Shown piece by piece: positions 1,948-27,475 of a stretch of DNA of 30,417 nucleotides. A program made the translations under genes and the position numbers. Every line of letters begins with the position of its first letter. The first letter of the stretch is position 1. Under the pieces are notes generated by a model that saw only the letters and a list, made by a program, of their open reading frames with translations, was not told where the DNA came from and did not search any database. The stretch is from a virus: positions 1-30,417 of the IMG/VR virus record IMGVR_UViG_3300021478_000093. One strand, given 5' to 3'.

Positions 1948-2169
1948 CTAAGAGCCCCTCGGGACGTTCTTCGCGGCTCTATTCCGTGCCGTCCCAAAGT
2001 CCTTCTCTGCTCCCTTATCTGCGGACGCCTTACGGCCTGCTTTCTTAGAGGCCGTGGGCTCCGCTCCGCGAGAATAGATAGGACTTGTCGGTTGATGCTG
2101 GCTCGGAGAGATTTCCAATCCATCACAAATACTCTTGGCTTCGCCATGACTTACGTTTGTGTTGGCCAT
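1948..2169 (-). CDS. Hypothetical small Ser/Ala/Lys-rich protein
   Basis: A 73-residue product beginning MANTNVSHGEAKS. The start is preceded by AGGAG about 11 bases upstream, and by a palindromic promoter-like element at 2204-2226, which is why I prefer it over the frame starting at 2147. The C-terminal half is basic and low-complexity (ASKKAGRKASADKGAEKDF, then RNRAAK). Its style recalls the small protein at 27498-27809 (SRSGAEP versus SRGAEP), though this may be composition only. It has its own upstream regulatory sequence, so it may be expressed apart from the late block. Function unknown. Confidence 0.55.
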   Translation of the reverse strand: MANTNVSHGEAKSICDGLEISPSQHQPTSPIYSRGAEPTASKKAGRKASADKGAEKDFGTARNRAAKNVPRGS

Positions 2170-2203: not shown

Positions 2204-2226
2204 TAATGTCAAGCTAGTTGACATTA
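2204..2226 (-). promoter_or_regulatory. TGTCAA-N5-TTGACA palindrome, copy 1
   Basis: A perfect 9-base inverted repeat (TAATGTCAA / TTGACATTA) with a 5-base spacer. On the minus strand it is followed by an ATATACG stretch and, further down, AGGAG and the ATG at 2169. The TTGACA could also serve as a -35 box with TATAGG 18 bases later. The same palindrome occurs near 15185, 23317 and 29893. It is best read as an operator or promoter-operator. Confidence 0.6.
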
Positions 2227-2258: not shown

Positions 2259-2627
2259 TTAATCAAATACAATCTTCAAACCTTTCGCCTTTGCCTTCCT
2301 TACGAATTCTGCAAAACCTGGCTTATCTTTGAGTGTTGAGGATATAATCACCCCGGTAAAATTATCAGGTGATATTGGCCCAGTATGTTGATACTCTCCC
2401 TTAAGACCATCACCATAATCTATCGACTTGTCAAATAAAGGGTTTGTAGTTTTACCTACAAAGACTACTCCTTGTGATGTTTTTATTCCTTTTGCAACTT
2501 TAATATCTTTAGCTACAGGTACAGTCCATTCATCTCTCTCATTTAGTTCAGTAGTCTTTAAACCCTCATCAATAATTTTTTGAGCTGTCTCAAATGGTGT
2601 ATTATGATAAAATATTTCTCCTTTAGG
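2259..2627 (-). CDS. ADP-ribosyltransferase-like C-terminal domain in the +1 frame of the upstream gene
   Basis: A frame of 121 further codons, open from the frameshift site to a TAA at 2259, with no ATG, GTG or TTG near its beginning. The product starts KGEIFYHNTPFETAQKII, continues through SQGVVFVGKT and GPISPDNFTGVIISS, and ends KGLKIVFD. An N-terminal strand with a His (FYHNT), a helix ending in DEGL, a central GVVFV strand and a late PxxFxGVII strand is the order seen in the ADP-ribosyltransferase fold (PARP, DarT, RNA 2'-phosphotransferase and phage polyvalent ART domains). The coding sequence is visibly richer in A+T than the gene before it, which suggests a swapped module. It most likely forms the C-terminus of the 2623-4935 product, giving about 891 residues. 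Alternatives are a separate gene with a non-standard start, or a sequencing frameshift. The open frame is clear; the ART assignment is tentative. Confidence 0.6.
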   Translation of the reverse strand, partial: PKGEIFYHNTPFETAQKIIDEGLKTTELNERDEWTVPVAKDIKVAKGIKTSQGVVFVGKTTNPLFDKSIDYGDGLKGEYQHTGPISPDNFTGVIISSTLKDKPGFAEFVRKAKAKGLKIVFD

Positions 2628-2637
2628 GTACCTCCTT
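2623..2637 (-). promoter_or_regulatory. Putative prfB-like +1 programmed frameshift site
   Basis: Read on the minus strand this is AAG-GAG-GTA-CCC-TAA followed by A. A full Shine-Dalgarno match (AAGGAGGT) ends one base before the slippery proline codon CCC and the stop codon TAA. Slipping +1 turns CCC into CCT and continues with AAA. The bacterial RF2 gene uses the same layout (AGGGGG, 3-base spacer, CUU, UGA), and CCC-stop +1 shifts are known in phage structural genes such as those of Listeria phage PSA. Confidence 0.65.
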
Positions 2638-4935
2638 CGGGATATTAGTCCCTAAAGTCTTTCTCTCCGAAGGACCCATTTTCTGAACGGCTTCTTTCAG
2701 AAACTCTTTATAAATATCACTATCTAATCCGATACCTTCTTGCTTCGCATACTTACGTAAAGCACTCAACATAAGTTTACCATTTGAACGCTCTCCGATA
2801 TGTTCTTCTAATTCTTTAACGGTAGTCAACTCCGTTGAAGACTCACTAACCATTGGCTTGCCACCTTGTTTCGGGGCACGAGGTTGCTCGGAGAGTGACT
2901 TGGCTCGCTCTTTAGCCTTCCGTTCAGCACCTTTTATTTTCTCGGCTTCTGGTCCGGTCCCGTGCTGACCTTCAGGAACCTTAGTTACTTTAGCCTGCTC
3001 CGCACGTTTAATTTCTTGAATTTCTCTGACGCCTTCTTGGATTATGTGCTCACTTAATGGAACTGTTTTAACCTGCGGAACCGAAGGTTGAACTACCGGA
3101 GGTGCGCTAGGTGGCGATGCGGGCGCAGGGGACACACCTCCGGTAGCCGGACCTCCGGTCGGAGCAGAGGGAGGACCGGAGCTTGAAGTCGGTGTTGGAC
3201 TAGGAGACATTCCTAACGGAGTTCCTCCCTGCGGAGCAGAAGGCGGATTCAAAGGCGACGGCCCTACCGGTTTGACTTGTAAAGCATTACCAAGTAATCC
3301 CTTCGGGGGCCCTGTATAAGGAAGCTTCTTCATTTCCTCTATGGCGCCAGCACGATTCGCCAAATCCGCAGCATACATAGTAGCCATTAAGCTTGCTACT
3401 AGTTTCTGACCGAATCCTGGAACAGTCCCGTATGCGACAGCACCCGCAGTCCCCGCAACAAATGGATGTTGTTTCAAAGATGAAATCTTTCCTCCAGAAT
3501 ATCCAGCGGAAGCGTTGCTTACCACTCTATGTATATTAGTATGAGAATCATATAAGTTCTTTAGGTAATTATCAGGAAGACCTAACTGCGCTAGGTCACT
3601 ATCTAAGTTCTTTAATTCAACTGATTTATTAGCCTTCTTCAAAGTGTCAAAGAAGTCTTGGTCATTTTCTGCGTGAATTAAATCTCCAAGCAATCCGTTC
3701 TTATGCTCGGACATAGCTTTTGTTATAGTATTATAAGCCTTATCCTGAGCCTCCCGACCAATGTCTTTTGCTCTCTTGGAGAGTTCCGATTCTATTGACT
3801 CATCCAGTTTGGCAAAAATTGCCGTCTCTCTCGGAGACTTATCAATCTCAAATAACGAAGTTCTTAATTGTTTCAAATCATTCCATGACATAGCTTTGCC
3901 ACGGGCGTTAATCATTTTCGTGGCTTTTTCTACGGCGGGGGTTTCAACCTTCGAAGCCTTACCGCCTAGAACTTCGTTCTTAAATTTATTAAGTCTCTGA
4001 CTTAGCGAAGCAGGGTCAAAGGAACCTGGCAGCCCTTTATTCGCGGACTGAACCATGTCCTCATCAGAAATAGACTTAACAAGACTCCCGACTTTAGTTC
4101 TATTAATGTCCGCCGTTATCTTTATAAGCGCAGCTTTACTCGTATCGAACGAATCACTCCGAACTTTAGCAGCCTTATCAACCGTATCATTCCATTTAAC
4201 TGCGGCTTCTCCATAGGATTTGACCTTCGGTATTGCTTTACCAGCTAGATGAGGTATTCCTAGAGTTCCAGCCACTTCTATGGCCGCAGCGATTGGCTGT
4301 CCATTCTTGGCTTGGTCAAACTTGTCGGTCAACCATGGTGACACGAAAGCCATTGAAGCAGCCACGGCTAGAGGGTCTCCTCCACTTCCTATAGCCGATA
4401 GAACTGGAACAGCCATTAAGGCTGTCTTTGCCGTAGCCTCTACGACTCGACCTGACTTCCAAGCTTCGGTTACGTTCTTATTCATCGCGTCCATAGATGC
4501 ATAAACGTCATGGGCGGTCATACTATTACCACGAGCAGGTATATTAACTTCTGGACTTGTTTTACTAATAGCTCCAGCCGGTAGGCTGATGGCCGGATGA
4601 CCAAAGAACGTAGAAGCCATAGCACCAAGATTATGCCCAATTCCCTTAATCCCCGTCTTAATCTGTTCACCCGCGGGAACTGGAGGTTGAGTCGGCAAGA
4701 ACGAAGGCGGAGCCTTAGGAGTCGTAGGCTGTCCTACCGGAGGTACTTGCGTGGTAGCCGTCGGAGTCTGAGTCGGATTCTTAGCTTTATAAGTCTTCAA
4801 TCCCCCAAGTAATGCCGTCTTCGCTTCCGGACTCATCTTTCCAAGAGCTTCGCGCTTCTTGTCATCCGGAACTGACAAGAATGCTTTCACAGTATCATCA
4901 GAGATACTCTGTTGACCTGTTTGTGGAGCAGCCAT
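2623..4935 (-). CDS. Large internal/ejection-type virion protein (770 residues, zero frame)
   Basis: The start ATG overlaps the stop of the upstream gene (TAATG), indicating coupling. The protein has a helical N-terminal segment (SVPDDKKREALGKMSPEAK), a Pro/Thr-rich linker, two hydrophobic Ala/Gly-rich stretches (around residues 175-210 and 490-525, e.g. VAGTAGAVAYGTVPGFGQ), and a long Pro/Ser/Gly-rich linker near residues 555-625, then a charged Lys/Glu-rich region and a compact helical end. Position at the end of the structural block, size and hydrophobic segments fit proteins stored in the capsid and ejected into the host by short-tailed phages (T7 gp15/16 and P22 gp16 roles). No lytic transglycosylase motif is visible. 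The zero frame stops exactly at a +1 frameshift-like site, beyond which an ART-like domain is encoded. Role is inferred from context. Confidence 0.7.
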   Translation of the reverse strand: MAAPQTGQQSISDDTVKAFLSVPDDKKREALGKMSPEAKTALLGGLKTYKAKNPTQTPTATTQVPPVGQPTTPKAPPSFLPTQPPVPAGEQIKTGIKGIGHNLGAMASTFFGHPAISLPAGAISKTSPEVNIPARGNSMTAHDVYASMDAMNKNVTEAWKSGRVVEATAKTALMAVPVLSAIGSGGDPLAVAASMAFVSPWLTDKFDQAKNGQPIAAAIEVAGTLGIPHLAGKAIPKVKSYGEAAVKWNDTVDKAAKVRSDSFDTSKAALIKITADINRTKVGSLVKSISDEDMVQSANKGLPGSFDPASLSQRLNKFKNEVLGGKASKVETPAVEKATKMINARGKAMSWNDLKQLRTSLFEIDKSPRETAIFAKLDESIESELSKRAKDIGREAQDKAYNTITKAMSEHKNGLLGDLIHAENDQDFFDTLKKANKSVELKNLDSDLAQLGLPDNYLKNLYDSHTNIHRVVSNASAGYSGGKISSLKQHPFVAGTAGAVAYGTVPGFGQKLVASLMATMYAADLANRAGAIEEMKKLPYTGPPKGLLGNALQVKPVGPSPLNPPSAPQGGTPLGMSPSPTPTSSSGPPSAPTGGPATGGVSPAPASPPSAPPVVQPSVPQVKTVPLSEHIIQEGVREIQEIKRAEQAKVTKVPEGQHGTGPEAEKIKGAERKAKERAKSLSEQPRAPKQGGKPMVSESSTELTTVKELEEHIGERSNGKLMLSALRKYAKQEGIGLDSDIYKEFLKEAVQKMGPSERKTLGTNIPKEVP

Positions 4936-6305
4936 TATTTCACCAGATTCATAATTTCATCATCAAGTGCAGTAGCGTCAGGGGGAGCATCCGCGGTAAT
5001 TCCATTAACTACATCACTTGGAATAGAAACTCCAGCAGCCTTATAAGCGTCTACAATAGCCTTAGATAAAGGCATACTTCCATTAACAACCTGTGTTTGT
5101 ACTTGAGCTAGATTTTGTCTTCCTTGGACGGCTTTTTGATAAGCAGCCTTTTGAGCATTAAGAATTAAATCTGCTTGTTGAAGTTTAGAGGTAAAATCTC
5201 CCATGTTAGTAAATCCGAGTTTGGATAAAATGTCATCGGAGATTACTCCCTGCTTCGCATATTGATTCTGCCAGTTCTGATATTTATCCCTCTCGGACTG
5301 AGCCTGTTTCATTAAAGTAGAAGCATCACTAGCAGATTTGTCTAATCCTGCTAGAGCGGTTCTATAACTTGATAGGATAAATTGAGGTGTTATCTTTCCA
5401 CTCCGATAGTAAGATGCCTCAGCAGAATATAACTCTGCTCGTTTATTGAATTCGGATAACTGAGCATCCTTAGTTTTTAGGTCTTTCTCAAGATTCTCCT
5501 TTTCTAAAGGAGAAAGATTCTTGTCATTCTCCAGCTTCCACTTCGTGGCTTCGGTAGAAGCATTCAAGTTCTTTATATTCGCTTCGGTTGTCTTACTACC
5601 TAGGTCGATTTGCTGGTTTATTTGACTGGTTCTAGATATAGTCTCGGTCGTACTAGCTACGTTACCTTGCGCCTCAGTCAACGGCTTCAACATACTCAAT
5701 AAAGCCTGCATATTCCCCATCGGGCCGCCTTGAGGTAATGACGGTCTTTGAGGCTGAGCCTGAGCCGTAGGCTTCTGCTTACCTTTATTCATGGCTTGAT
5801 GAACGCCTACGGCTTCCGGAGGAGGTTTCTCAGGTTCCATTAACTGGAAGTATCCAAGTCCCTTTTCCAAAGTCTTTCTAATCTTGTCATCTCCGAGGAA
5901 CATCTCCGCCTTCTGTTTATTCTGGGCATCTACGTTTGGGTCGCCGGTCGGAGTCAAGAATTGTTGTAATTGATTATAATAACTCTCCGCTTTCTGGGTT
6001 TCCAAAGCCTCTTTCTTAGCCTTATGACCTTCTATAAGACCCATTATCCCACCGGCTATACCACCATATTCTACGTTGGTTTGGGACTTCTGTTGAGGGG
6101 CCTTCGGTAACGGTACGTTAGTTTGTCCACCGGCCTGAGATTGAGACATTTGTTGTGCAAGCATAGCTAGAAGCTTCTTAACCGCGTCCTGGTCAGGCTG
6201 AACCTGTCCCCCAGATTGAGCCGAAGGCTGACCTTGTGGAATCAACGGATTCTGTCCAGGAGAATATCCTGGCGCATTTGATAACGGACCTTGTCCATTA
6301 GCCAT
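4935..6305 (-). CDS. Gln/Ala-rich coiled-coil internal virion protein
   Basis: A 456-residue protein with a Gln/Pro/Gly-rich N-terminus (LAQQMSQSQAGGQ), a short glycine-zipper-like segment (YGGIAGGIMGLIEGHKAKKEA, in pieces near residue 80), and long heptad-like helices (LEKENLEKDLKTKDAQLSEF; KSASDASTLMKQAQSERDKYQ). This pattern is typical of DNA-injection proteins of short-tailed phages, which form helical channels after ejection, but no specific family is recognised. It is preceded 11 bases away by the next Gln-rich gene and overlaps the 770-residue gene downstream, so three adjacent proteins probably act together. Function inferred. Confidence 0.6.
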   Translation of the reverse strand: MANGQGPLSNAPGYSPGQNPLIPQGQPSAQSGGQVQPDQDAVKKLLAMLAQQMSQSQAGGQTNVPLPKAPQQKSQTNVEYGGIAGGIMGLIEGHKAKKEALETQKAESYYNQLQQFLTPTGDPNVDAQNKQKAEMFLGDDKIRKTLEKGLGYFQLMEPEKPPPEAVGVHQAMNKGKQKPTAQAQPQRPSLPQGGPMGNMQALLSMLKPLTEAQGNVASTTETISRTSQINQQIDLGSKTTEANIKNLNASTEATKWKLENDKNLSPLEKENLEKDLKTKDAQLSEFNKRAELYSAEASYYRSGKITPQFILSSYRTALAGLDKSASDASTLMKQAQSERDKYQNWQNQYAKQGVISDDILSKLGFTNMGDFTSKLQQADLILNAQKAAYQKAVQGRQNLAQVQTQVVNGSMPLSKAIVDAYKAAGVSIPSDVVNGITADAPPDATALDDEIMNLVK

Positions 6306-14946: not shown

Positions 14947-15176
14947 TACGGAGTCACCAAGGTCTTAGTTCCTATAGCCGTTGATAACGTAGTTAAAGAG
15001 GTCATTTGACTATTTACATAAGAGGTCTTATCTCCGCCAACCAGACCAAGTAATTCAACGAAGTTAGCTTCGCTAAGAGTAAGCGAAGCTATCTCGCCGT
15101 TGGCGTTCAGCGTAAAGTCAACTAAGACTCCATTGGAAGAACTCTTACGAGTTGTAACTTCGAGTAGGATACTCAT
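14946..15176 (-). CDS. Small hypothetical protein
   Basis: The 76-residue product is MSILLEVTTRKSSSNGVLVD and on, with FTLNANGEIASLTLSEANFVELLGLVGG in the middle. It looks like a small beta-helix-type structural accessory. The ATG overlaps the stop of the ATP-grasp gene (GTATGA). A TGTCAA-N5-TTGACA palindrome lies just 9 bases upstream of the ATG, so this gene and those after it may have their own regulation. Function unknown. Confidence 0.55.
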   Translation of the reverse strand: MSILLEVTTRKSSSNGVLVDFTLNANGEIASLTLSEANFVELLGLVGGDKTSYVNSQMTSLTTLSTAIGTKTLVTP

Positions 15177-16459
15177 ACATTTAATGTCAAGTATCTTGAC
15201 ACTCGCCGTAAATCAGACTTGAATTGTTCCGCAAGGTCTGTTCTATACTGCATATCAGGTAATCGAATCTTCTTACAGAGTTTATATGCCTCTTCGAAGG
15301 CTTCATCAATCGAATTCTCCGAATAGCCAACGGCTACTCCTATTATTCCAACGCCACCGGAGGTAATGAAGTTATCCTCTTGTAGAGATACTTCATAGGG
15401 GTAGAATCTTTCAAGGTCCTTAAATCGAAGATTTCCGATTGGAAGACCTTTCTTAGACTCAAAGTCCTCGCTAGGCCAAGGCGGGGTAGAAATCCGAACT
15501 CCCGCAGCGTAGCCCTTACGGAGTGGCATGGTATCTCCGGCAGCACCGCGAGCACAATCCCAGACGAACTCTCCAAATGAACCGTCGAACAGCCCATATA
15601 GAAATGTAGGAAAGGCGTCATAGCCAAATCGTGGTGTAAATTCAAGGGCATAGGCTTCGCCTACCTTAGAGACAACGGAGTTTATGTCGATTGGTCCGTT
15701 GTATGATACTTCTGTTAGGAAGTCTTCGAGCCGGAGTAGATTCTCGCAAAGTGGGCACTCATCTTCAAGGCAAGCCCAGACAACGTTTCCGGTGCATCCT
15801 CCGGACGGGCCAAGGTCATCGTTAAGGAATTGCTTTCTCTCGAAGGTATGATTGAAGGGCTTAATAAAATGGTCTTTGGAGAACCATCCTTCGGATGAGA
15901 TACAAGTACCACTGATGAATTCTTGGAGGATGAACTCGGCTTCGGCTTCGCCAATGATAGTTTTATAATGCTCCAGCATATGGAGCATATCAGTACGGTC
16001 GTAAGAGACATAAGAAGGTAGATTACCGCTATGATGGCCTTCGGGCTTAAATACGAGTCTAGTAGAATCATCCTGACTCTCCACGAAGTGTGAGGCATCT
16101 TCCCAAGAGTTAAAGCTCTTAGCCTGCGGCTGTTTAATACCGCACTCTTTCATTATAGAGGAAGCGTATTTACGGTCACTTTCAAGCTTATCGGCTATTT
16201 GACTACCACCGAAGGTTAGGGCGTCAGCGTCACGGTAGGTATCTAGCAACGCTCCGGAGCCAGTACAATCTGCTATTACAACAGGAGTGAAGTCTGGGGC
16301 GTTTCCTTTCTCTACGAGACCTTCTCCACGCCCTTCAAGCATGGGGTCACGAATCCACATAGAGGTCTTATGGCCTTCGGCCTTTAGCCGCAAGGCTAGA
16401 CCTAGTCCGTCCCCGCCTTCACTAATCAATAGAAAGCCCATATTCTCCGAATCGCTCAT
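15173..16459 (-). CDS. PurD-like ATP-grasp ligase
   Basis: At 428 residues the length equals that of bacterial phosphoribosylamine-glycine ligase (PurD, GAR synthetase). The N-terminus has a glycine-rich nucleotide-binding-like loop (LLISEGGDGLGLALRL). The ATP-grasp core includes LVFKPEGHHSGN (lysine strand), ILQEFISGTCISSEGWF, and DLGPSGGCTGNVVW, which parallels the DxGPNTGGMG segment of PurD. ALEFTPRFGYDAFPT follows, then a C-terminal part ITSGGVGIIGVAVGYSENSIDEAFEEAYKLCKKI and MQYRTDL that parallels the PurD C-terminal domain (GGRVLGV...eA...Y.RtDi). PurD joins glycine to phosphoribosylamine in purine synthesis. Several motif residues differ, and the gene sits between the endopeptidase and tail genes, so another substrate is possible. 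It overlaps the endopeptidase gene by 4 bases. Confidence 0.72.
   Translation of the reverse strand: MSDSENMGFLLISEGGDGLGLALRLKAEGHKTSMWIRDPMLEGRGEGLVEKGNAPDFTPVVIADCTGSGALLDTYRDADALTFGGSQIADKLESDRKYASSIMKECGIKQPQAKSFNSWEDASHFVESQDDSTRLVFKPEGHHSGNLPSYVSYDRTDMLHMLEHYKTIIGEAEAEFILQEFISGTCISSEGWFSKDHFIKPFNHTFERKQFLNDDLGPSGGCTGNVVWACLEDECPLCENLLRLEDFLTEVSYNGPIDINSVVSKVGEAYALEFTPRFGYDAFPTFLYGLFDGSFGEFVWDCARGAAGDTMPLRKGYAAGVRISTPPWPSEDFESKKGLPIGNLRFKDLERFYPYEVSLQEDNFITSGGVGIIGVAVGYSENSIDEAFEEAYKLCKKIRLPDMQYRTDLAEQFKSDLRRVSRYLTLNV
15185..15201 (-). promoter_or_regulatory. TGTCAA-N5-TTGACA palindrome, copy 2
   Basis: A perfect 6-base inverted repeat with the same 5-base spacing as the copies near 2204 and 29893, lying inside the last codons of the PurD-like gene. 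On the minus strand it is followed by TTAAATG and then by the start codon of the 76-residue gene. The flanking TTAA is shared with the other copies. Confidence 0.5.
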
Positions 16460-17622: not shown

Positions 17623-18297
17623 CTAATTATAATTAAATTCGACATCAACCACTATAGCATACAATCTATACAACGAAGAGGCCGGAGTAGTAACGGTAAT
17701 CTCAGCCCATATATTTGCTAAGTCAGTTATTTGATATATCTGTTGACCTGCTGGAAAGGGAACAAGTGTCACATATTTCGATGTTGCAGCAGTACCGAAG
17801 GTCTTGGAGAGGCCGTTCGCGCCGTCGGCAATCATAGAGGTTATAGTGTCGGTAGCTTGGTTGCCGTGATTAATCTTGTCAACTCGAACGTTATGGGTGG
17901 TTAGGTTTGCTACAGTGATTTGATAAATAACCTCTATGGAGATTGGCTTGAAGCCTTTAACTTTTAGAGCCGTTCTAGGAGTTATCTGCTGGATAGCAGA
18001 CATAGCCGGAATAACATCAGGTCGGTATACTTGAGGTTGTGCCGAACCTGGAATCCCAGTACCCCCGAATTGTTCTTGAATATCTTCTCCGAATCCAGTT
18101 CTTACAAGTGTTCCTTCGGAAAGGGGGGCGCTTAGGGTTATTGGACCGAGGGACGAACCTAGATTATATGAGAAGTCTGACGCTGCATTTCTAGTTAGAA
18201 CTGCGGATGCCGAAGCAATAAACGTAGCAGCAGAGATATAGAAATAGCCGTCTGTGAATCCGAGGTCTTGTTGGTATCTTGAGGCTGTATGTGGCAT
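17623..18297 (-). CDS. Virion structural protein, unknown
   Basis: The 224-residue product begins MPHTASRYQQDLGFTDGYFYISAATFIASASAVLTRNAAS. A middle portion holds 'PLSEGTLVRTGFGEDIQEQFGG' and 'PRTALKVKGFKPISIEVIYQITVANLTTHNVRV'; it ends in a beta-rich SSLYRLYAIVVDVEFNYN. The gene is preceded by two stacked hairpins, one around the ribosome binding site, hinting at tuned translation. Placement between the zinc-finger genes and the capsid genes suggests a capsid or tail component made in quantity. No family recognised. Confidence 0.6.
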   Translation of the reverse strand: MPHTASRYQQDLGFTDGYFYISAATFIASASAVLTRNAASDFSYNLGSSLGPITLSAPLSEGTLVRTGFGEDIQEQFGGTGIPGSAQPQVYRPDVIPAMSAIQQITPRTALKVKGFKPISIEVIYQITVANLTTHNVRVDKINHGNQATDTITSMIADGANGLSKTFGTAATSKYVTLVPFPAGQQIYQITDLANIWAEITVTTPASSLYRLYAIVVDVEFNYN

Positions 18298-18304
18298 TTG
18301 GTAT

Positions 18305-18340
18305 AACCCTCCTTTAGGGTTGTGTGCTTTCGCACAACTA
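18305..18340 (-). promoter_or_regulatory. Hairpins enclosing the ribosome binding site of the 224-residue gene
   Basis: On the minus strand a GTGC-GAAA-GCAC stem with a GNRA loop (about 18325-18337) is followed by AACCCT-AAAGG-AGGGTT (18305-18321), whose loop and 3' arm contain the AGGAGG Shine-Dalgarno 10 bases before the ATG at 18297. Neither is followed by a T run, so it is not an intrinsic terminator. It may set translation level or mRNA stability. Confidence 0.45.
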
Positions 18341-18348
18341 ACTACCTA

Positions 18349-18603
18349 TCATGACAATGAATCTACATCATCACTTCCAGTTTCTTTCAGAATATCCGCT
18401 ACGCGTAGTTCCTGTTCTACGGAAGCATTAAGCTTATCCTGTATTAAGTTTGGACGGAGCCATGCAATCGTATTATCTGTACATGCTGTACAGACGATTA
18501 AGCCTAACTGACGACGGAGTTCAGTGACGCGGAAATCGAACCCACACCTATCACAACGATGCCAAGGTGCGATTCCGCGCCCCGAATGAGATTGCCTAGG
18601 CAT
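18349..18603 (-). CDS. Zinc-ribbon-type small protein
   Basis: The 84-residue product has a basic N-terminus (MPRQSHSGRGIAPWHR), then CDRCGFDFRVTELRRQLGLIVC (in parts) with CTAC after ~20 residues, giving two CxxC knuckles expected to bind zinc, and an acidic C-terminus. Homologous-looking proteins are common beside phage capsid genes. It ends 50 bases before a hairpin region and starts 17 bases after the major capsid protein stop. Fold is fairly sure; function unknown. Confidence 0.72.
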   Translation of the reverse strand: MPRQSHSGRGIAPWHRCDRCGFDFRVTELRRQLGLIVCTACTDNTIAWLRPNLIQDKLNASVEQELRVADILKETGSDDVDSLS

Positions 18604-18619
18604 GACAAATCTCCTTTAT

Positions 18620-19573
18620 CTATGGGCCATTTGAACCCCAACTTCCCATCCACGTGGTTGCACCCACGGAGAATCTCATTCGAGAAAGTTGCTTAATGGA
18701 AAAAGTGTCAAAATCATCCGAGAAGTCCTCATCAAGTTCCCTACGAACAAGGAACTTGAACCAGTGCCCTTCCTTCTCGGTGATAGCAAACCATGCTGAT
18801 GCAGATGTTAGGTAATGACTAATGAAGTATTGCAAGTCTTCTTTAATCAAGGAGTTAATTTCGTTATCTGCGGTGTATGGCTTGTGGGGGCTGCCAAGGA
18901 TTTCACGCGCAATCCATTTGAGTTCTGGAGGAATAACCAAGTATCGAGGCTTAATCGAGATAGGCAAGCCTTGAGAGTCAACTAGACGCTCGAATTGATT
19001 AATCATTAGTTGAATTGCTGTGAATGACAAATCCACGTCAGTGGCAGGCCGATTCGGATACGTGCCAGCGGCGCTGATGATATTTGTCAAGCCCGGCCCA
19101 TATGTAGTAGCGGCGCTACCGCCAAGGAGAGGGTGTTGATTGTGGAAGATGGACAAGCCATCAGTTGTAGTCTGAGTGGTGAAACCAAGGTTAAACAAGT
19201 TCCAAGCGTTCTGCTCTTTAGTGAAATGGGCGGAACGAGCTATCGCTTTAGGAACCTGCATGATAATTCCGTATTGGTCATCATCATACAGTTCAAAAGA
19301 TGACCGTACTCCAAGAGCGTATGTGAAGTTGATATAACGCTTTGTGCCGCCTTGAATGGCGTCTTGGTAGATTGTGGATTCGGCTTCTGGTTTCAAAGGC
19401 ATTGGGGGAAGACCGGAGAACTCTACTTCGTCTTCGAACGCCTTGTCAGAGGGTTCAACGTGGAGAATGTGGGAGAATTCCTCCTCTCTCTGTAAGGTAT
19501 CGACCCAATGTACAAACTCAGCATGAAGGCCCGGAGCCTGTAGCTGAGAGAATTGACCTCTTACCATCGTCAT
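18620..19573 (-). CDS. Major capsid protein
   Basis: A 317-residue protein whose pattern fits HK97-fold major capsid proteins of podovirus-like and Mu gpT-like type: an early KRYINFTYALGVRSSFELYDDDQYGIIMQ, ARSAHFTKEQNAWNLF, DGLSIFHNQHPLLGG, a long 'LSFTAIQLMINQFERLVDSQGLPISIKPRYLVIPPELKWIAREIL', and ASAWFAITEKEGHWFKFLVRRELDEDF near the end. AAGGAG lies 9 bases before ATG. Neighbours are scaffold-like and decoration-like genes upstream and zinc-ribbon gene downstream, the normal order. It would form the icosahedral shell. Confidence 0.88.
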   Translation of the reverse strand: MTMVRGQFSQLQAPGLHAEFVHWVDTLQREEEFSHILHVEPSDKAFEDEVEFSGLPPMPLKPEAESTIYQDAIQGGTKRYINFTYALGVRSSFELYDDDQYGIIMQVPKAIARSAHFTKEQNAWNLFNLGFTTQTTTDGLSIFHNQHPLLGGSAATTYGPGLTNIISAAGTYPNRPATDVDLSFTAIQLMINQFERLVDSQGLPISIKPRYLVIPPELKWIAREILGSPHKPYTADNEINSLIKEDLQYFISHYLTSASAWFAITEKEGHWFKFLVRRELDEDFSDDFDTFSIKQLSRMRFSVGATTWMGSWGSNGP

Positions 19574-21855: not shown

Positions 21856-22161
21856 TTAGTGTCTGATATTCTTTAACTCATCTGGAATAGCGGAGCTTGG
21901 AATCTTCTTCATAGTTCCGCTTGCAAGTCCACTAACATAATTCTTAGCTATACCGACAAGTTCTTGTAGTTCATTTAAAACTTCTAGTCTACCTTGTAGT
22001 CTATACAAGTCTACCTGGTCCCTAGCGGAGCTAAGCTTGTCTACTACCTCCTGGCGGTAATCCTGCAAGTAAACTCTGTACATCTCCCCCGCGGTTGATT
22101 GGTACCACTGGAGGAACTGCACCGGGTGCTCCAGGAACTTGTCCAGTTTGTTGTTGGGCAT
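21856..22161 (-). CDS. Small helical protein overlapping the portal gene
   Basis: The 101-residue frame starts at ATG 22161, preceded by GAGG 6 bases upstream, and ends 10 bases before the scaffold-like gene. It is helical and charged: MPNNKLDKFLEHPVQFLQWYQ, then VYLQDYRQEVVDKLSS and VDLYRLQGRLEVLNELQELVG. Its first 131 bases overlap the portal's C-terminal disordered tail in a different frame. A shorter version could start at the ATG of MYRVYLQ, but there GGGGGA touches the ATG. A head or scaffold accessory role is possible; function unknown. Confidence 0.6.
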   Translation of the reverse strand: MPNNKLDKFLEHPVQFLQWYQSTAGEMYRVYLQDYRQEVVDKLSSARDQVDLYRLQGRLEVLNELQELVGIAKNYVSGLASGTMKKIPSSAIPDELKNIRH

Positions 22162-23944
22162 TAGAGTCCTCAGGTTCAGGAATCAGAATATCAACATCTT
22201 CCTTGTCGAAGCTTCGTAGAATAGACTTCATAACTACGTTGGAGGCTTTTATGACCTCTTTCAAATACGAAACTACTGGAGGCGGGGTCATTGGAGAGTT
22301 TACTTGAGCGATTAGCTGAGCGATTCCAAGGTAGTGCTGACGCATTACATTGACGAGGATTAAATCATTTTGTTTTTCAACTTCTCTATTAACAGAAGAA
22401 GTAGACGAATAAACAGGAAGACCAATCTTTCCGTCCTTCACGGCTCTAATAGACTCCATGACTACATCACGTTTATCTCCGAATACGTTTAGAATATCAT
22501 CGGAGATTCCATACTTGGCGTAGTCAGCGAGGATAACGCGACCGAGTCTGGTATGAGCGTATCTCATGTCGGAGATATTCAAATCGGTACGACGATTACC
22601 ATCTTGCATTACGGCTAGAGTACCCATAGCGGAATAGATTCCGCGCTTTCCTTGACTTCCAGTACCAGCGCCCTGCATCGGAGGAGAGATACCCGCTCGC
22701 CTTTCGGCCAACTCTAATGTGAAACGCTCGTCATCTATAGATTGAGGAGATATGTCTCCGGCCGCAAGAGCTTCAATTTCGTCTTTGGCTGCGGGAACGG
22801 TAGCTGTAGGATAGATACGATAACCGGCATGAAGTTTCGAATCAGGGTCAACTCTCCATACTCGCGTATTCGCAATAAGCCTATTATCCAATCTGGAGTT
22901 GTGTGATTCACTAGCTTCCTCCTGGAAGCCCCACATAGTCTCGGCATAGCCATAACCATAAATCATGTCGTCTCGATAGAATAGACGACCTAGAATCCAT
23001 GGGTCAAGAGTATGAGTATCGTAGATACCACGCATCAAGGTGTCGGAGTTCTTGTGGTATGTAGCGATGATTCTAGGACGGGCCTTCCCATCCGGAGTGG
23101 TCCATTCTAGCCAACACTCATAGAGGTCCCACTCGGCGTAGCCATAAGAACTGGAAGTCTTAGCTCCGCTAGATTCCTGTTTAACAGTTGTAGTATAGTC
23201 TGGACCAGTCCTATCAGGCTTCGTAAGAATACTGTCTACACGGCTAGGTTCGTATATCTGGAAGAACTTTCGTTCCTCTAATTCGCTCCGCGTCATGGGG
23301 CGTTTGTGTATTTTAATGTCAGCACTCTTGACAGTCTTGGCATTGGGAGGGATTAGGAAATGCTCAAACGCTAGTTTCTCTGGACGCGGCCCTTTATACT
23401 CTACGTTCTTAGTGAAAGTAGGTTTATAGTTCTTAGACCCCATACTACCATCGCCGGCGGATTCTTCCATATCGAAGCGGTAGCGGACTTCGTGAGGACA
23501 GAGAATCATAGAAGTGCCGTACTTGATAGTCTCGCCAAAGAATTCGTGATATACACGGTATAAGTCTAGGAACTCTGGCTCTATACCTGTAAATTCCATC
23601 AAATCTTCGATAGCCGTTCGATGCTCGTCAGTTATATCTTGGTGAGAACCGAATATCTTAGCTATCCAAGGAGGTCTAGTTTTCAGAACCGCTGACATAA
23701 CTCTTGCCAGGAGTGTGTCACTAAAGATTCCTATGATTGGAACGACTAAATTCGAGGCGTTAGCAAAAGGAAAATCTCTAGTAGCCTCTCTAGGAGTCGC
23801 CTCATAGGCTTTGCGCCATTTGTTAATCTTATCTTCATGGAGTTGTTTCAATCCCTCTTCGAGAGCAAGAATACGATTCTTCAAATGCCGTTTTAGTTTT
23901 TCTTCGGCATCAGGAGAGAGATTGACTTTGATGAAATCAGGCAT
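22031..23944 (-). CDS. Portal protein
   Basis: The 637-residue protein carries an N-terminal helix (LKRHLKNRILALEEGLKQLHEDK), a KWRKAYEATPREATRDFPFANASNLVVPIIG segment common in phage portals, GTSMILCPHEVRY, AYHFLIPPNAKTVKSAD-type sequence, GYGYAETMWGFQEEASESHNSRLDN, and a wing-end with a long 'LGRVILADYAKYGISDDIL'. Its length and place (after terminase, before scaffold) fit a portal ring through which DNA is packaged. The last 40 residues are Gln/Pro/Gly-rich and overlap the next gene. The 'SSGAKTSSSYG' portion is disordered. Family call is fairly strong. Confidence 0.78.
   Translation of the reverse strand: MPDFIKVNLSPDAEEKLKRHLKNRILALEEGLKQLHEDKINKWRKAYEATPREATRDFPFANASNLVVPIIGIFSDTLLARVMSAVLKTRPPWIAKIFGSHQDITDEHRTAIEDLMEFTGIEPEFLDLYRVYHEFFGETIKYGTSMILCPHEVRYRFDMEESAGDGSMGSKNYKPTFTKNVEYKGPRPEKLAFEHFLIPPNAKTVKSADIKIHKRPMTRSELEERKFFQIYEPSRVDSILTKPDRTGPDYTTTVKQESSGAKTSSSYGYAEWDLYECWLEWTTPDGKARPRIIATYHKNSDTLMRGIYDTHTLDPWILGRLFYRDDMIYGYGYAETMWGFQEEASESHNSRLDNRLIANTRVWRVDPDSKLHAGYRIYPTATVPAAKDEIEALAAGDISPQSIDDERFTLELAERRAGISPPMQGAGTGSQGKRGIYSAMGTLAVMQDGNRRTDLNISDMRYAHTRLGRVILADYAKYGISDDILNVFGDKRDVVMESIRAVKDGKIGLPVYSSTSSVNREVEKQNDLILVNVMRQHYLGIAQLIAQVNSPMTPPPVVSYLKEVIKASNVVMKSILRSFDKEDVDILIPEPEDSNAQQQTGQVPGAPGAVPPVVPINRGGDVQSLLAGLPPGGSRQA
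23317..23333 (-). promoter_or_regulatory. TGTCAA-N5-(C/T)TGACA palindrome, copy 3 (one mismatch)
   Basis: Inside the portal gene. On the minus strand it reads TGTCAA, spacer GAGTG, CTGACA, then TTAAAATA, so one base of symmetry is lost. The plus-strand spacer CACTC is identical to that of the copy at 29893. It keeps the same spacing and the flanking TTAA as the other copies. Confidence 0.4.
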
Positions 23945-25738: not shown

Positions 25739-27475
25739 TTAACGAACCCCCACGCTGTATGGGAGATTTACTCGCCTAGCGCCTGCGGCGTTCGCGGCAC
25801 GCCAAGCAAGTTCCTTCATGTAAGACATTGGAAGACGGAGCATTTGCGGAGCATATGCCAAGGCATCAAGTATATCTTTGTAGCGGCCCTTCGGGAAGGT
25901 ACTGAACTCTCCAAGGAAGTCCATCTGCTTCCGCTGAGTGTAGAATCGGTGAGACTCAAATATCGGAGCGAGAACATTCCGGATACGAAATTCTTTCTTA
26001 GTGGTTAGGCTACCGTCAGGAGATTCAACTTCGCCTTTTAGTTCGACTATCTTGAGAGTACGGCCCTCAAGGCGATTGACGAACCCAATATGATGAACTA
26101 TATATCTCTGAGCGGCAATGGACTCAACGCCAATCTTTCGGACGTTCCATTTGTCGGATAGCTCGTATATCTTGGCATAGTATGCATCGTAGTTAACACC
26201 TTGTGCCCAAGAGTCGATAAGGTAGAAGTCTCCTTGGGCCGACAGGCCCACTACGTTGATAGCATGACGGCAACGACCATAACCAGCATTTCCAGAATGA
26301 TTAGGGTCAGTAACAAGGCAGAGACTAAGCTGAGATACTGGAATATCTTTCTTAACGATTCCATTAATGACTTCATGTTTTATAATCCAGGAGTTATCTT
26401 GGTCTTTCTCAAGACTGAAATACCGAAGGTCTTCCTCGTGGAAGTCGGCGTTCTCCGGGGCGGAGGGGTTATTTAGAAACTGACAAGAGAACAGATAGGA
26501 GCCGAAACGCTCTCGGAGCCTTTCTAACTTCTCTAGACTAAAAACCTCTGGCATTATCGGAGTATCCGGAGGGTGAATATTACAACAGCCGCCAAGGGCG
26601 GAGTGAGTATGAAATTGGAACCAAGGTTCATGTTCACGGATATGACTATTCAAGTCGGTATAGGACCAGCGATTGCCGATGACTAATTCGTCGCATTCGT
26701 GTTTGTCGTCTTCGGATTCGAACGCGCCGGCAACGAGTTTGTGATACTCGATGGTCTTCTCCATAATGGAGGGAGACTCTATAGCTTTACGACCGACAAG
26801 GTCGTCCTGTACTAACAAGCCGTCATAATGACGAGACTGAAGGGCACCTCCGACTCCGAGGAAATCGAAAGTGCCCTCGCCATGCCCGCCCGAAGCCGCC
26901 TTAGCAACGGAGGGGATTTTGTGGTGCATAGAAAAGGAAGACCATATCTCAGCGGAGCTGGGGAGGATTTCTGGGAATAGGTAACGGAAGATTGTATTCG
27001 ACTCGTAATGAATGGAGATTCGATGACCGAGCTTTGCAGAGTTGGTTATGTTCTCGCTGACTAACATATTACGCGCAGCAGGGCGGTGCATTCGGTCTTG
27101 CCATTCTACGAATTCTTTAGAATAGCCGAGTTTAGTAAACTCATTCCGGTCATCATCATTTAGAGGAAGAACTCGCCACATAGGCAAGCCTTCACTTCCC
27201 ATCGTAGACTTATAATGGTCGCGGGGAATTTCGAATACATCTTTTATGTGGTCGGATTCGAGACCGAGACAGATAGGTTTATGGAGTCGGTCAGTTAGTT
27301 TCTTACGTTTCAGACCAACTTTAATAAAGTAATATAATGAACCTAAACAGTTTAATCTCCAACGCTTGCGTGACTCGACCTGGCTACATCCCGAAACTGG
27401 AAGGGGAATAAAAGTTTCACGTTCCGAAGGCGGCGGAGAATTTAGAGATTGAACAGGTAGGCTGGAGACGGACAT
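25739..27475 (-). CDS. terL: Terminase large subunit
   Basis: The 578-residue protein shows the DNA-packaging motor layout. A Walker A-like PRDHYKST at about 84-91, a Walker B GLLVQDD at about 219-225, a coupling segment GNRWSYTDLN near 267-276, and a C-terminal RNase H-like nuclease with Asp (LVTDPNHSG, about 390), Glu (IGVESIAAQRYI, about 451) and Asp (DILDALAY, about 534/537). It translocates DNA into the prohead through the portal and cuts concatemers. Gene order TerS, two small genes, TerL is intact. No Shine-Dalgarno is clear at the chosen ATG, so the exact start is uncertain. Confidence 0.9.
   Translation of the reverse strand: MSVSSLPVQSLNSPPPSERETFIPLPVSGCSQVESRKRWRLNCLGSLYYFIKVGLKRKKLTDRLHKPICLGLESDHIKDVFEIPRDHYKSTMGSEGLPMWRVLPLNDDDRNEFTKLGYSKEFVEWQDRMHRPAARNMLVSENITNSAKLGHRISIHYESNTIFRYLFPEILPSSAEIWSSFSMHHKIPSVAKAASGGHGEGTFDFLGVGGALQSRHYDGLLVQDDLVGRKAIESPSIMEKTIEYHKLVAGAFESEDDKHECDELVIGNRWSYTDLNSHIREHEPWFQFHTHSALGGCCNIHPPDTPIMPEVFSLEKLERLRERFGSYLFSCQFLNNPSAPENADFHEEDLRYFSLEKDQDNSWIIKHEVINGIVKKDIPVSQLSLCLVTDPNHSGNAGYGRCRHAINVVGLSAQGDFYLIDSWAQGVNYDAYYAKIYELSDKWNVRKIGVESIAAQRYIVHHIGFVNRLEGRTLKIVELKGEVESPDGSLTTKKEFRIRNVLAPIFESHRFYTQRKQMDFLGEFSTFPKGRYKDILDALAYAPQMLRLPMSYMKELAWRAANAAGARRVNLPYSVGVR

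What the first reader, a model, noticed from the sequence alone, without database searches (positions are those of the whole stretch)
2259..2640. prfB-like +1 frameshift likely adds an ART-fold effector domain to an injected virion protein
Seen: the zero frame of the 770-codon gene ends AAG-GAG-GTA-CCC-TAA, so a complete Shine-Dalgarno sits two bases from a Pro codon at a stop. The +1 frame (CCT-AAA-GGA) is open for 121 more codons, with no ATG, GTG or TTG start near its head. Known: the same elements drive +1 shifting in prfB, and CCC-stop +1 shifts occur in phage structural genes. Inference: most ribosomes make the 770-residue form and a fraction make about 891 residues whose tail looks ADP-ribosyltransferase-like (FYHNT helix, GVVFV, PxxFxGVII). 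The tail is more A+T-rich than the gene, consistent with a swappable toxin module. An injected ART delivered at entry would resemble phage polyvalent or MuF-type effectors, but regulated by frameshift stoichiometry.
Basis: partly seen in the sequence, partly recalled or inferred. Interest (0 to 1): 0.9.

Follow-up and report, generated by a model that had tools for sequence, protein, structure and literature searches.

The report
Phage frameshift site before ART-like tail
In an unusual tailed phage, the last gene of the late cluster ends at a strong ribosome-slippage signal that would let some ribosomes add an extra domain, predicted to fold like enzymes that use NAD to modify other molecules; the parts are known separately, but the combination looks new and is untested.

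Summary
The 770-codon gene ends AAG-GAG-GTA-CCC-TAA, with an 8-base Shine-Dalgarno (SD) two bases before the CCC. The +1 frame then runs 121 codons, with no ATG/GTG/TTG in its first 91, and has coding base composition. The site is identical in a second assembly (48.6 kb contig). Of 29 stretches in the viral collection with the same 15-base motif, only this one ends a long frame and opens another.

A +1 shift at CCC_UAA is the best explanation. SPP1 uses the same CCCUAA, and the SD adds a prfB-like stimulator, one base closer than in prfB. Product: 770 + 121 = 891 residues.

The ADP-ribosyltransferase (ART) guess gained support. Two low-confidence AlphaFold models both hit the ART lobe of yeast Tpt1 first (second run: probability 0.99, Z 6.8); weaker matches were to DarT and archaeal Tpt1. 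Catalysis is unproven.

"Injected virion protein" rests on gene position and one partial neighbour match only.

Main rival: a relic gene that lost its start codon, because TAAAGGAG at the stop looks like this phage's usual ribosome-binding site. No homologue exists to test conservation. Verdict: new variant of a known kind, supported but unproven.

The parts
2623..4935 (-). 770-codon zero-frame gene, last large gene of the late cluster; candidate internal/ejection protein; Pro-rich linker around residues 555-625
   Evidence: no family above threshold
2623..2844 (-). residues 698-770: small helical domain directly before the shift site
   Evidence: AlphaFold model of P0002; weak helical matches only, Z 4.2 or less
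2630..2637 (-). AAGGAGGT, full-length Shine-Dalgarno inside the gene, 2 nt (from GGAGG) before the CCC; predicted stimulator
   Evidence: duplex with the anti-SD -13.1 kcal/mol, prfB site -10.7
2625..2628 (-). CCC-T slip site; tRNA-Pro can re-pair from CCC to CCU
   Evidence: same CCCUAA as SPP1 gene 17.1
2623..2625 (-). TAA zero-frame stop, followed by A
2652..2654 (-). TAG that closes the +1 frame 8 codons upstream of the shift; no usual start codon between it and the tail
2259..2624 (-). +1-frame tail, 121 codons plus stop, no usual start in the first 91 codons; predicted ART-fold domain
   Evidence: folds
2618..2624 (-). AAAGGAG overlapping the stop: codes Lys-Gly-Glu, but also resembles a ribosome-binding site (possible relic)
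2598..2609 (-). Tyr-His-Asn-Thr, the ART first-strand motif (YHGT in Tpt1/KptA, from general knowledge)
4935..6305 (-). 456-aa neighbour; matches a 475-aa protein at the same place in another phage's late cluster

Best explanation
The gene makes two products. Most ribosomes stop at the UAA and make the 770-residue protein. A fraction stall with peptidyl-tRNA-Pro on CCC in the P site, the UAA in the A site, and the AAGGAGGU just behind paired to the 16S anti-SD. The tRNA slips one base to CCU and translation continues for 121 codons, giving an 891-residue form with an ADP-ribosyltransferase-fold domain at its C-terminus. Shown: the sequence elements, the open coding frame, the lack of a usual start. 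Inferred from precedent: that slippage happens, at a few to some tens of per cent. Predicted only: the ART fold. Inferred from gene order: that the protein is an internal/ejection protein, so that a minority of copies would carry the ART into the host at entry, as phage T4 Alt does.
For: Site and open frame. Same CCCUAA slip in SPP1 gene 17.1, with +1 and a 3:1 product ratio in tails (PMC6316719). CCC_UGA +1 in Listeria phage tail genes, and E. coli pheL CCC_UGA shifts at 15% (PMC5009743). CCC is among the next most slippery codons after CUU before a stop (PMC10885494). SD stimulation of +1 shifting (PMC5009743). SD duplex stronger than in prfB. Only this motif hit of 29 lies between two long frames. 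Identical in a second assembly. No usual start, and no minus-strand promoter-like site near the tail. ART fold: both AlphaFold runs put Tpt1 7yw4 first (E 0.21, probability 0.47; E 0.024, probability 0.99, next hit E 1.8). VIA Z 6.8 over 106 residues, with DarT 7omu Z 3.3 and archaeal Tpt1/KptA Z 2.4-2.8 also covering the tail. Pfam PTS_2-RNA E 0.073.
Against: No homologue of tail or gene, so no conservation test. SD is one base closer than the 3-nt optimum. UAA can be read by both bacterial release factors, unlike prfB's UGA (general knowledge). TAAAGGAG at the stop is this phage's common ribosome-binding arrangement. No downstream RNA structure (z -0.71). AlphaFold models are low-confidence (mean pLDDT 42 and 51), and Z below 8 can be a common arrangement (note). 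Host unknown; portal and terminase relatives include viruses assigned to archaea, in which case the bacterial precedents would apply less directly.
Confidence: 0.52

Rival explanations
1. Relic of a separate downstream gene. The tail was an independent small ART gene with its own ribosome-binding site (TAAAGGAG at the stop) whose start codon has been lost. It is now silent, or made only by chance slippage.
For: In this phage TAAAGGAG or TAAGGAG at a stop is a usual site for the next gene (e.g. GAGTAAAGGAGCC...ATG). The codon 5 nt after it is TTT, one base from TTG. Small ART-like proteins that begin right before YHNT exist in other contigs. The tail differs in base composition.
Against: The second, perfect SD (AAGGAGGT) and the CCC-TAA are not needed for this and are rare. 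The frame is fully open with coding composition, so any loss would have to be recent. Even so, CCC_UAA would be expected to leak.
Confidence: 0.2
2. A single-base insertion, real or from assembly, in a gene that is continuous in nature (CC to CCC).
For: A one-base change at the C run would be enough to put the two frames out of register. The two records are otherwise 100% identical over about 30 kb outside a short stretch at one contig end, so they may come from the same population.
Against: Two assemblies agree, and a run of three C is not error-prone. A random break would not be expected just behind an 8-base SD and at a Pro codon before a stop (about 1e-4).
Confidence: 0.1
3. The tail is translated on its own from an unusual start codon (ATA, 2 nt after AAAGGAG) by reinitiation after the UAA.
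For: An SD-like site overlaps the stop, and an ATA lies in frame just before FYHNT.
Against: A spacing of 2 nt is too short and AUA is a very weak start (general knowledge). The other near-cognates in the first 25 codons lie past the YHNT motif.
Confidence: 0.08
4. The +1 form is made, but the tail is not an ART; it is another small alpha/beta domain, for example a structural extension like the Ig-like ones in other phages.
For: Low-confidence models. No Pfam family above its cut-off.
Against: In the second model the tail-covering rows of highest Z are Tpt1 and DarT, 7yw4 far above the rest; YHNT motif; Pfam's only weak match is also Tpt1.
Confidence: 0.1

Closest known systems
SPP1 gene 17.1/17.1* +1 frameshift (PMC6316719)
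   Same: CCCUAA at the end of a phage late gene; +1 shift; an added C-terminal domain of similar size (87 residues there, 121 here).
   Different: SPP1 adds a tail-tube extension; here the tail looks like an ART and an SD precedes the site. The SPP1 record was not held, so its upstream sequence was not checked.
Listeria phage PSA tsh (CCC_UGA) and cps
   Same: +1 slip at a Pro codon next to the stop in a structural gene.
   Different: PSA tsh has no SD before ACA-CCC-TGA and gains a structural extension.
Bacterial prfB (RF2) +1 frameshift
   Same: Internal SD, slip codon, stop, +1 re-pairing.
   Different: CUU_UGA_C and a 3-nt spacer there; CCC_UAA_A and a 2-nt spacer here; no autoregulation by RF2 expected.
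Virion-packaged ARTs: T4 Alt, MuF-ART fusions, N4 virion RNA polymerase-ART, polyvalent proteins (PMC9503650, PMC5512222)
   Same: ART-like domain joined to a product of the late cluster, as expected for delivery at entry.
   Different: In those papers the ART is a separate gene or an in-frame fusion and 'frameshift' does not occur in the texts; here it would be joined by frameshift. No MuF, portal or other polyvalent domain was found.
Tpt1/KptA RNA 2'-phosphotransferase (PF01885)
   Same: Best structural match of the tail is its ART lobe.
   Different: No N-terminal lobe recognised; score below the family cut-off; repair activity not implied.

Membership tests
SD-stimulated +1 frameshift site (prfB type) | SD placed 3 nt before the slip codon | tested here: inconclusive
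   Perfect AAGGAGGT, spacer 2 nt instead of 3; duplex stronger than prfB's
SD-stimulated +1 frameshift site (prfB type) | Slip codon able to re-pair in +1, directly before a stop | tested here: met
   CCC_UAA, re-pairing to CCU
SD-stimulated +1 frameshift site (prfB type) | Long coding +1 frame without its own start | tested here: met
   121 codons, first start at codon 91, coding composition
SD-stimulated +1 frameshift site (prfB type) | Conservation of the site in relatives | tested here: inconclusive
   No relatives found except a near-identical record
SD-stimulated +1 frameshift site (prfB type) | Frameshift product detected | not testable with these tools
   Needs a reporter or proteomics
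Phage CCC_UAA late-gene frameshift (SPP1 17.1* type) | Gene encodes a virion protein | tested here: inconclusive
   End of the late cluster; the neighbour matches one in a syntenic podovirus; the 770-aa protein itself has no match
ART superfamily | ART fold | tested here: inconclusive
   7yw4 first in both models, best probability 0.99 and Z 6.8, but mean pLDDT 42 and 51
ART superfamily | First-strand His motif (YHxT) | tested here: met
   YHNT at 2609-2598
ART superfamily | Remaining catalytic residues and NAD-dependent transfer | not testable with these tools
   No reliable residue alignment; needs an assay
Tpt1/KptA (PF01885) | Family score above cut-off | tested here: not met
   13.6 bits against 26, positions 97-126 of 177 only
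Polyvalent / MuF-type effector | MuF, portal or other polyvalent domain in the same protein | tested here: not met
   No such family in the 770-aa protein by Pfam or PHROGs

The most novel reading that the evidence does not exclude
A phage uses an SD-boosted +1 ribosomal frameshift at the end of an ejection protein to attach an ADP-ribosyltransferase effector to a set minority of the copies packed in each virion, so that effector dose per infection is set by the slip rate.
Probability: 0.33. Interest if true: 0.75.

Novelty: new variant of a known kind. Interest (0 to 1): 0.55.

Why it matters
Phage late-gene frameshifts known from the papers read here add structural extensions, and known injected ARTs are separate or in-frame products. 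A frameshift that fuses an enzyme to a delivered protein would tie effector stoichiometry to ribosome slippage and give a compact, testable case of an SD and CCC_UAA acting together. It would also mean that gene callers miss such effector tails, since this one has no start codon.

Tried and rejected
Close homologues of tail or gene in viral contigs, phages, plasmids and genome contigs: none beyond the near-identical record. Degenerate DNA patterns for YHNT...A..I...G and GPIxP...GV: several unrelated ART-like proteins shared only the first motif, which is partly circular because the pattern selected for it. A combined three-motif pattern hit only this locus. MAFFT alignments of the tail with those proteins were too poor beyond the first motif to use for folding. 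Foldseek against viral models: nothing meaningful. L30e-like matches in the first VIA list fell to Z 2.7 or less in the second. The idea that residues 698-770 are the N lobe of a KptA split by the frameshift: a short resemblance (LSALRK...GIGLD) seen by eye, but the model is a helical bundle and Pfam does not match there. RNA pseudoknot or hairpin stimulator: none. P0001 against the 759-aa protein at the same place in L011: no similarity. SPP1 record not held.

Full report
What is there. The window is a fragment of a dsDNA phage record; the genome search gives it as a 30,417-base virus record. IMGVR_UViG_3300050821_000928 (48,647 bases) holds the same phage: 100% identical where it overlaps the window except for about 160 bases at its own 5' end. 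Its two ends overlap at window 18431-18652, so a circular or terminally redundant genome of about 48.4 kb is likely. Late genes run on the minus strand: terminase large subunit (PHROG 38, E 9e-50), SU10-like portal, Mu gpT-like capsid, a 538-aa structural protein (PHROG 3287), then 305-, 456- and 770-aa proteins at the end.

The site. The 770-codon gene ends ATC-CCG-AAG-GAG-GTA-CCC-TAA. The +1 frame, CCT-AAA-GGA-GAA, runs 121 codons and then stops. The frame upstream is closed by a TAG 8 codons before the CCT, and the first usual start codon lies 91 codons in, so no ordinary start can give the tail. The tail is coding: GC by codon position 0.48/0.36/0.21, 10 and 18 stops in the other frames, 5 of 200,000 shuffles as open. 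It is more A+T-rich than the gene (0.35 against 0.47 GC).

How unusual. AAGGAGGT occurs 3 times in the 48.6-kb genome on both strands, and this is the only ORF of 100 aa or more that ends CCC-TAA. In viral contigs the motif AAGGAGGTNCCCTAA was found in 29 stretches. In the others the zero frame upstream is at most 60 codons, and the one other with more than 100 open +1 codons has an ATG right there. Only the site studied has a long frame before (777 codons open) and a long start-less +1 frame after.

Mechanism and precedent. SPP1 gene 17.1 shifts +1 at the same CCCUAA, and tails hold the two forms at 3:1 (PMC6316719). Listeria phages shift at CCC_UGA in tsh, and E. coli pheL CCC_UGA shifts at 15% (PMC5009743). 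In randomised prfB sites CCC is among the next most slippery codons after CUU (PMC10885494). An SD 3 nt before the slip site stimulates +1 shifting (PMC5009743). Here the SD pairs more strongly than prfB's (-13.1 against -10.7 kcal/mol) but lies one base closer. PSA tsh has no SD before its ACA-CCC-TGA. No RNA structure was found downstream. So slippage is expected on known rules in a bacterium with the usual anti-SD; the rate is unknown.

The tail domain. Sequence libraries gave nothing above threshold. AlphaFold on the tail alone had mean pLDDT 42, yet Foldseek put the ART lobe of yeast Tpt1 (7yw4) first, with E 0.21. A second run on residues 698-770 joined to the tail had mean pLDDT 51. Foldseek again put 7yw4 first with probability 0.99, E 0.024, and the next hit at E 1.8. 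VIA-align gave Z 6.8 over 106 residues, with DarT at Z 3.3 and archaeal Tpt1/KptA at Z 2.4-2.8 also on the tail. Pfam's only match to the joined sequence is PTS_2-RNA, E 0.073, below its cut-off and at the YHNT region. I read this as a probable ART-superfamily domain, about 0.8, with catalysis unproven. The two models share the same residues, so they are not independent evidence.

Is it an injected virion protein? Only indirectly. The 456-aa neighbour matches a 475-aa protein in L011 (32% over 97 residues, E 4e-9), and in L011 a 759-aa protein ends the same run of late genes. The 770- and 759-aa proteins have no detectable similarity. The last late genes of a distant relative, vir526, are also large and unnamed. 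Ejection proteins sit at this place in podoviruses such as Klebsiella phage Klyazma, where they are annotated IVP-C and IVP-D.

Main rival. TAAAGGAG straddles the stop. In this phage the next gene's ribosome-binding site often sits there, and small ART-like proteins that start just before YHNT exist elsewhere. The tail could be a downstream gene whose start was lost. The perfect upstream SD and the CCC favour frameshifting, but without relatives the two cannot be separated; the relic could also be the ancestor of the frameshift fusion. [quoted passage not shown]

What is known. ARTs packaged in phage heads are established (T4 Alt, MuF-ART, N4 virion polymerase-ART) as separate genes or in-frame fusions (PMC9503650, PMC5512222). 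A search for papers holding ribosomal frameshift, ejection protein and phage together found none in the held library, which is not a full literature search. Verdict: new variant of a known kind, plausible and testable, unproven.

Noticed in passing
window 2205-2225 (minus strand); second copy at L007 about 4796-4820: Palindrome AATGTCAACTAGCTTGACATT, a near-copy of which (24 of 25 bases over the shared stretch) lies elsewhere in the genome; it holds TTGACA and precedes a 73-aa minus-strand ORF (2169..1948), so it may be an operator/promoter.
   Followed up: partly
window 15173-16459: 428-aa gene among the late genes matches GARS ATP-grasp (PurD-like) domains (E 3.5e-9; C domain 6.8e-6), odd company for structural genes.
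   Followed up: no
window 22031-23944 and 25739-27475: The portal's only phage match is a virus assigned to Methanomicrobiales (vir526, which also carries groS), and the terminase matches include ANMV-1 of an archaeon; the host of this lineage is unclear.
   Followed up: partly
window 18493-18652: About 18 differences in 160 bases between the window and the 5' end of G001, while G001's 3' end matches the window exactly: strain mixture or a mosaic end.
   Followed up: no
window 18309-18319 (minus strand): CCCTAAAGGAG, the 11-mer at the shift site, recurs once in the genome as the ribosome-binding region of the 224-aa gene 18297..17623.
   Followed up: partly
L017, L018, L019, L021: A family of small phage proteins beginning (M)ITLYHNTSNENA.KI..EGI..G.R that look ART-like but matched no ART family in Pfam.
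   Followed up: partly
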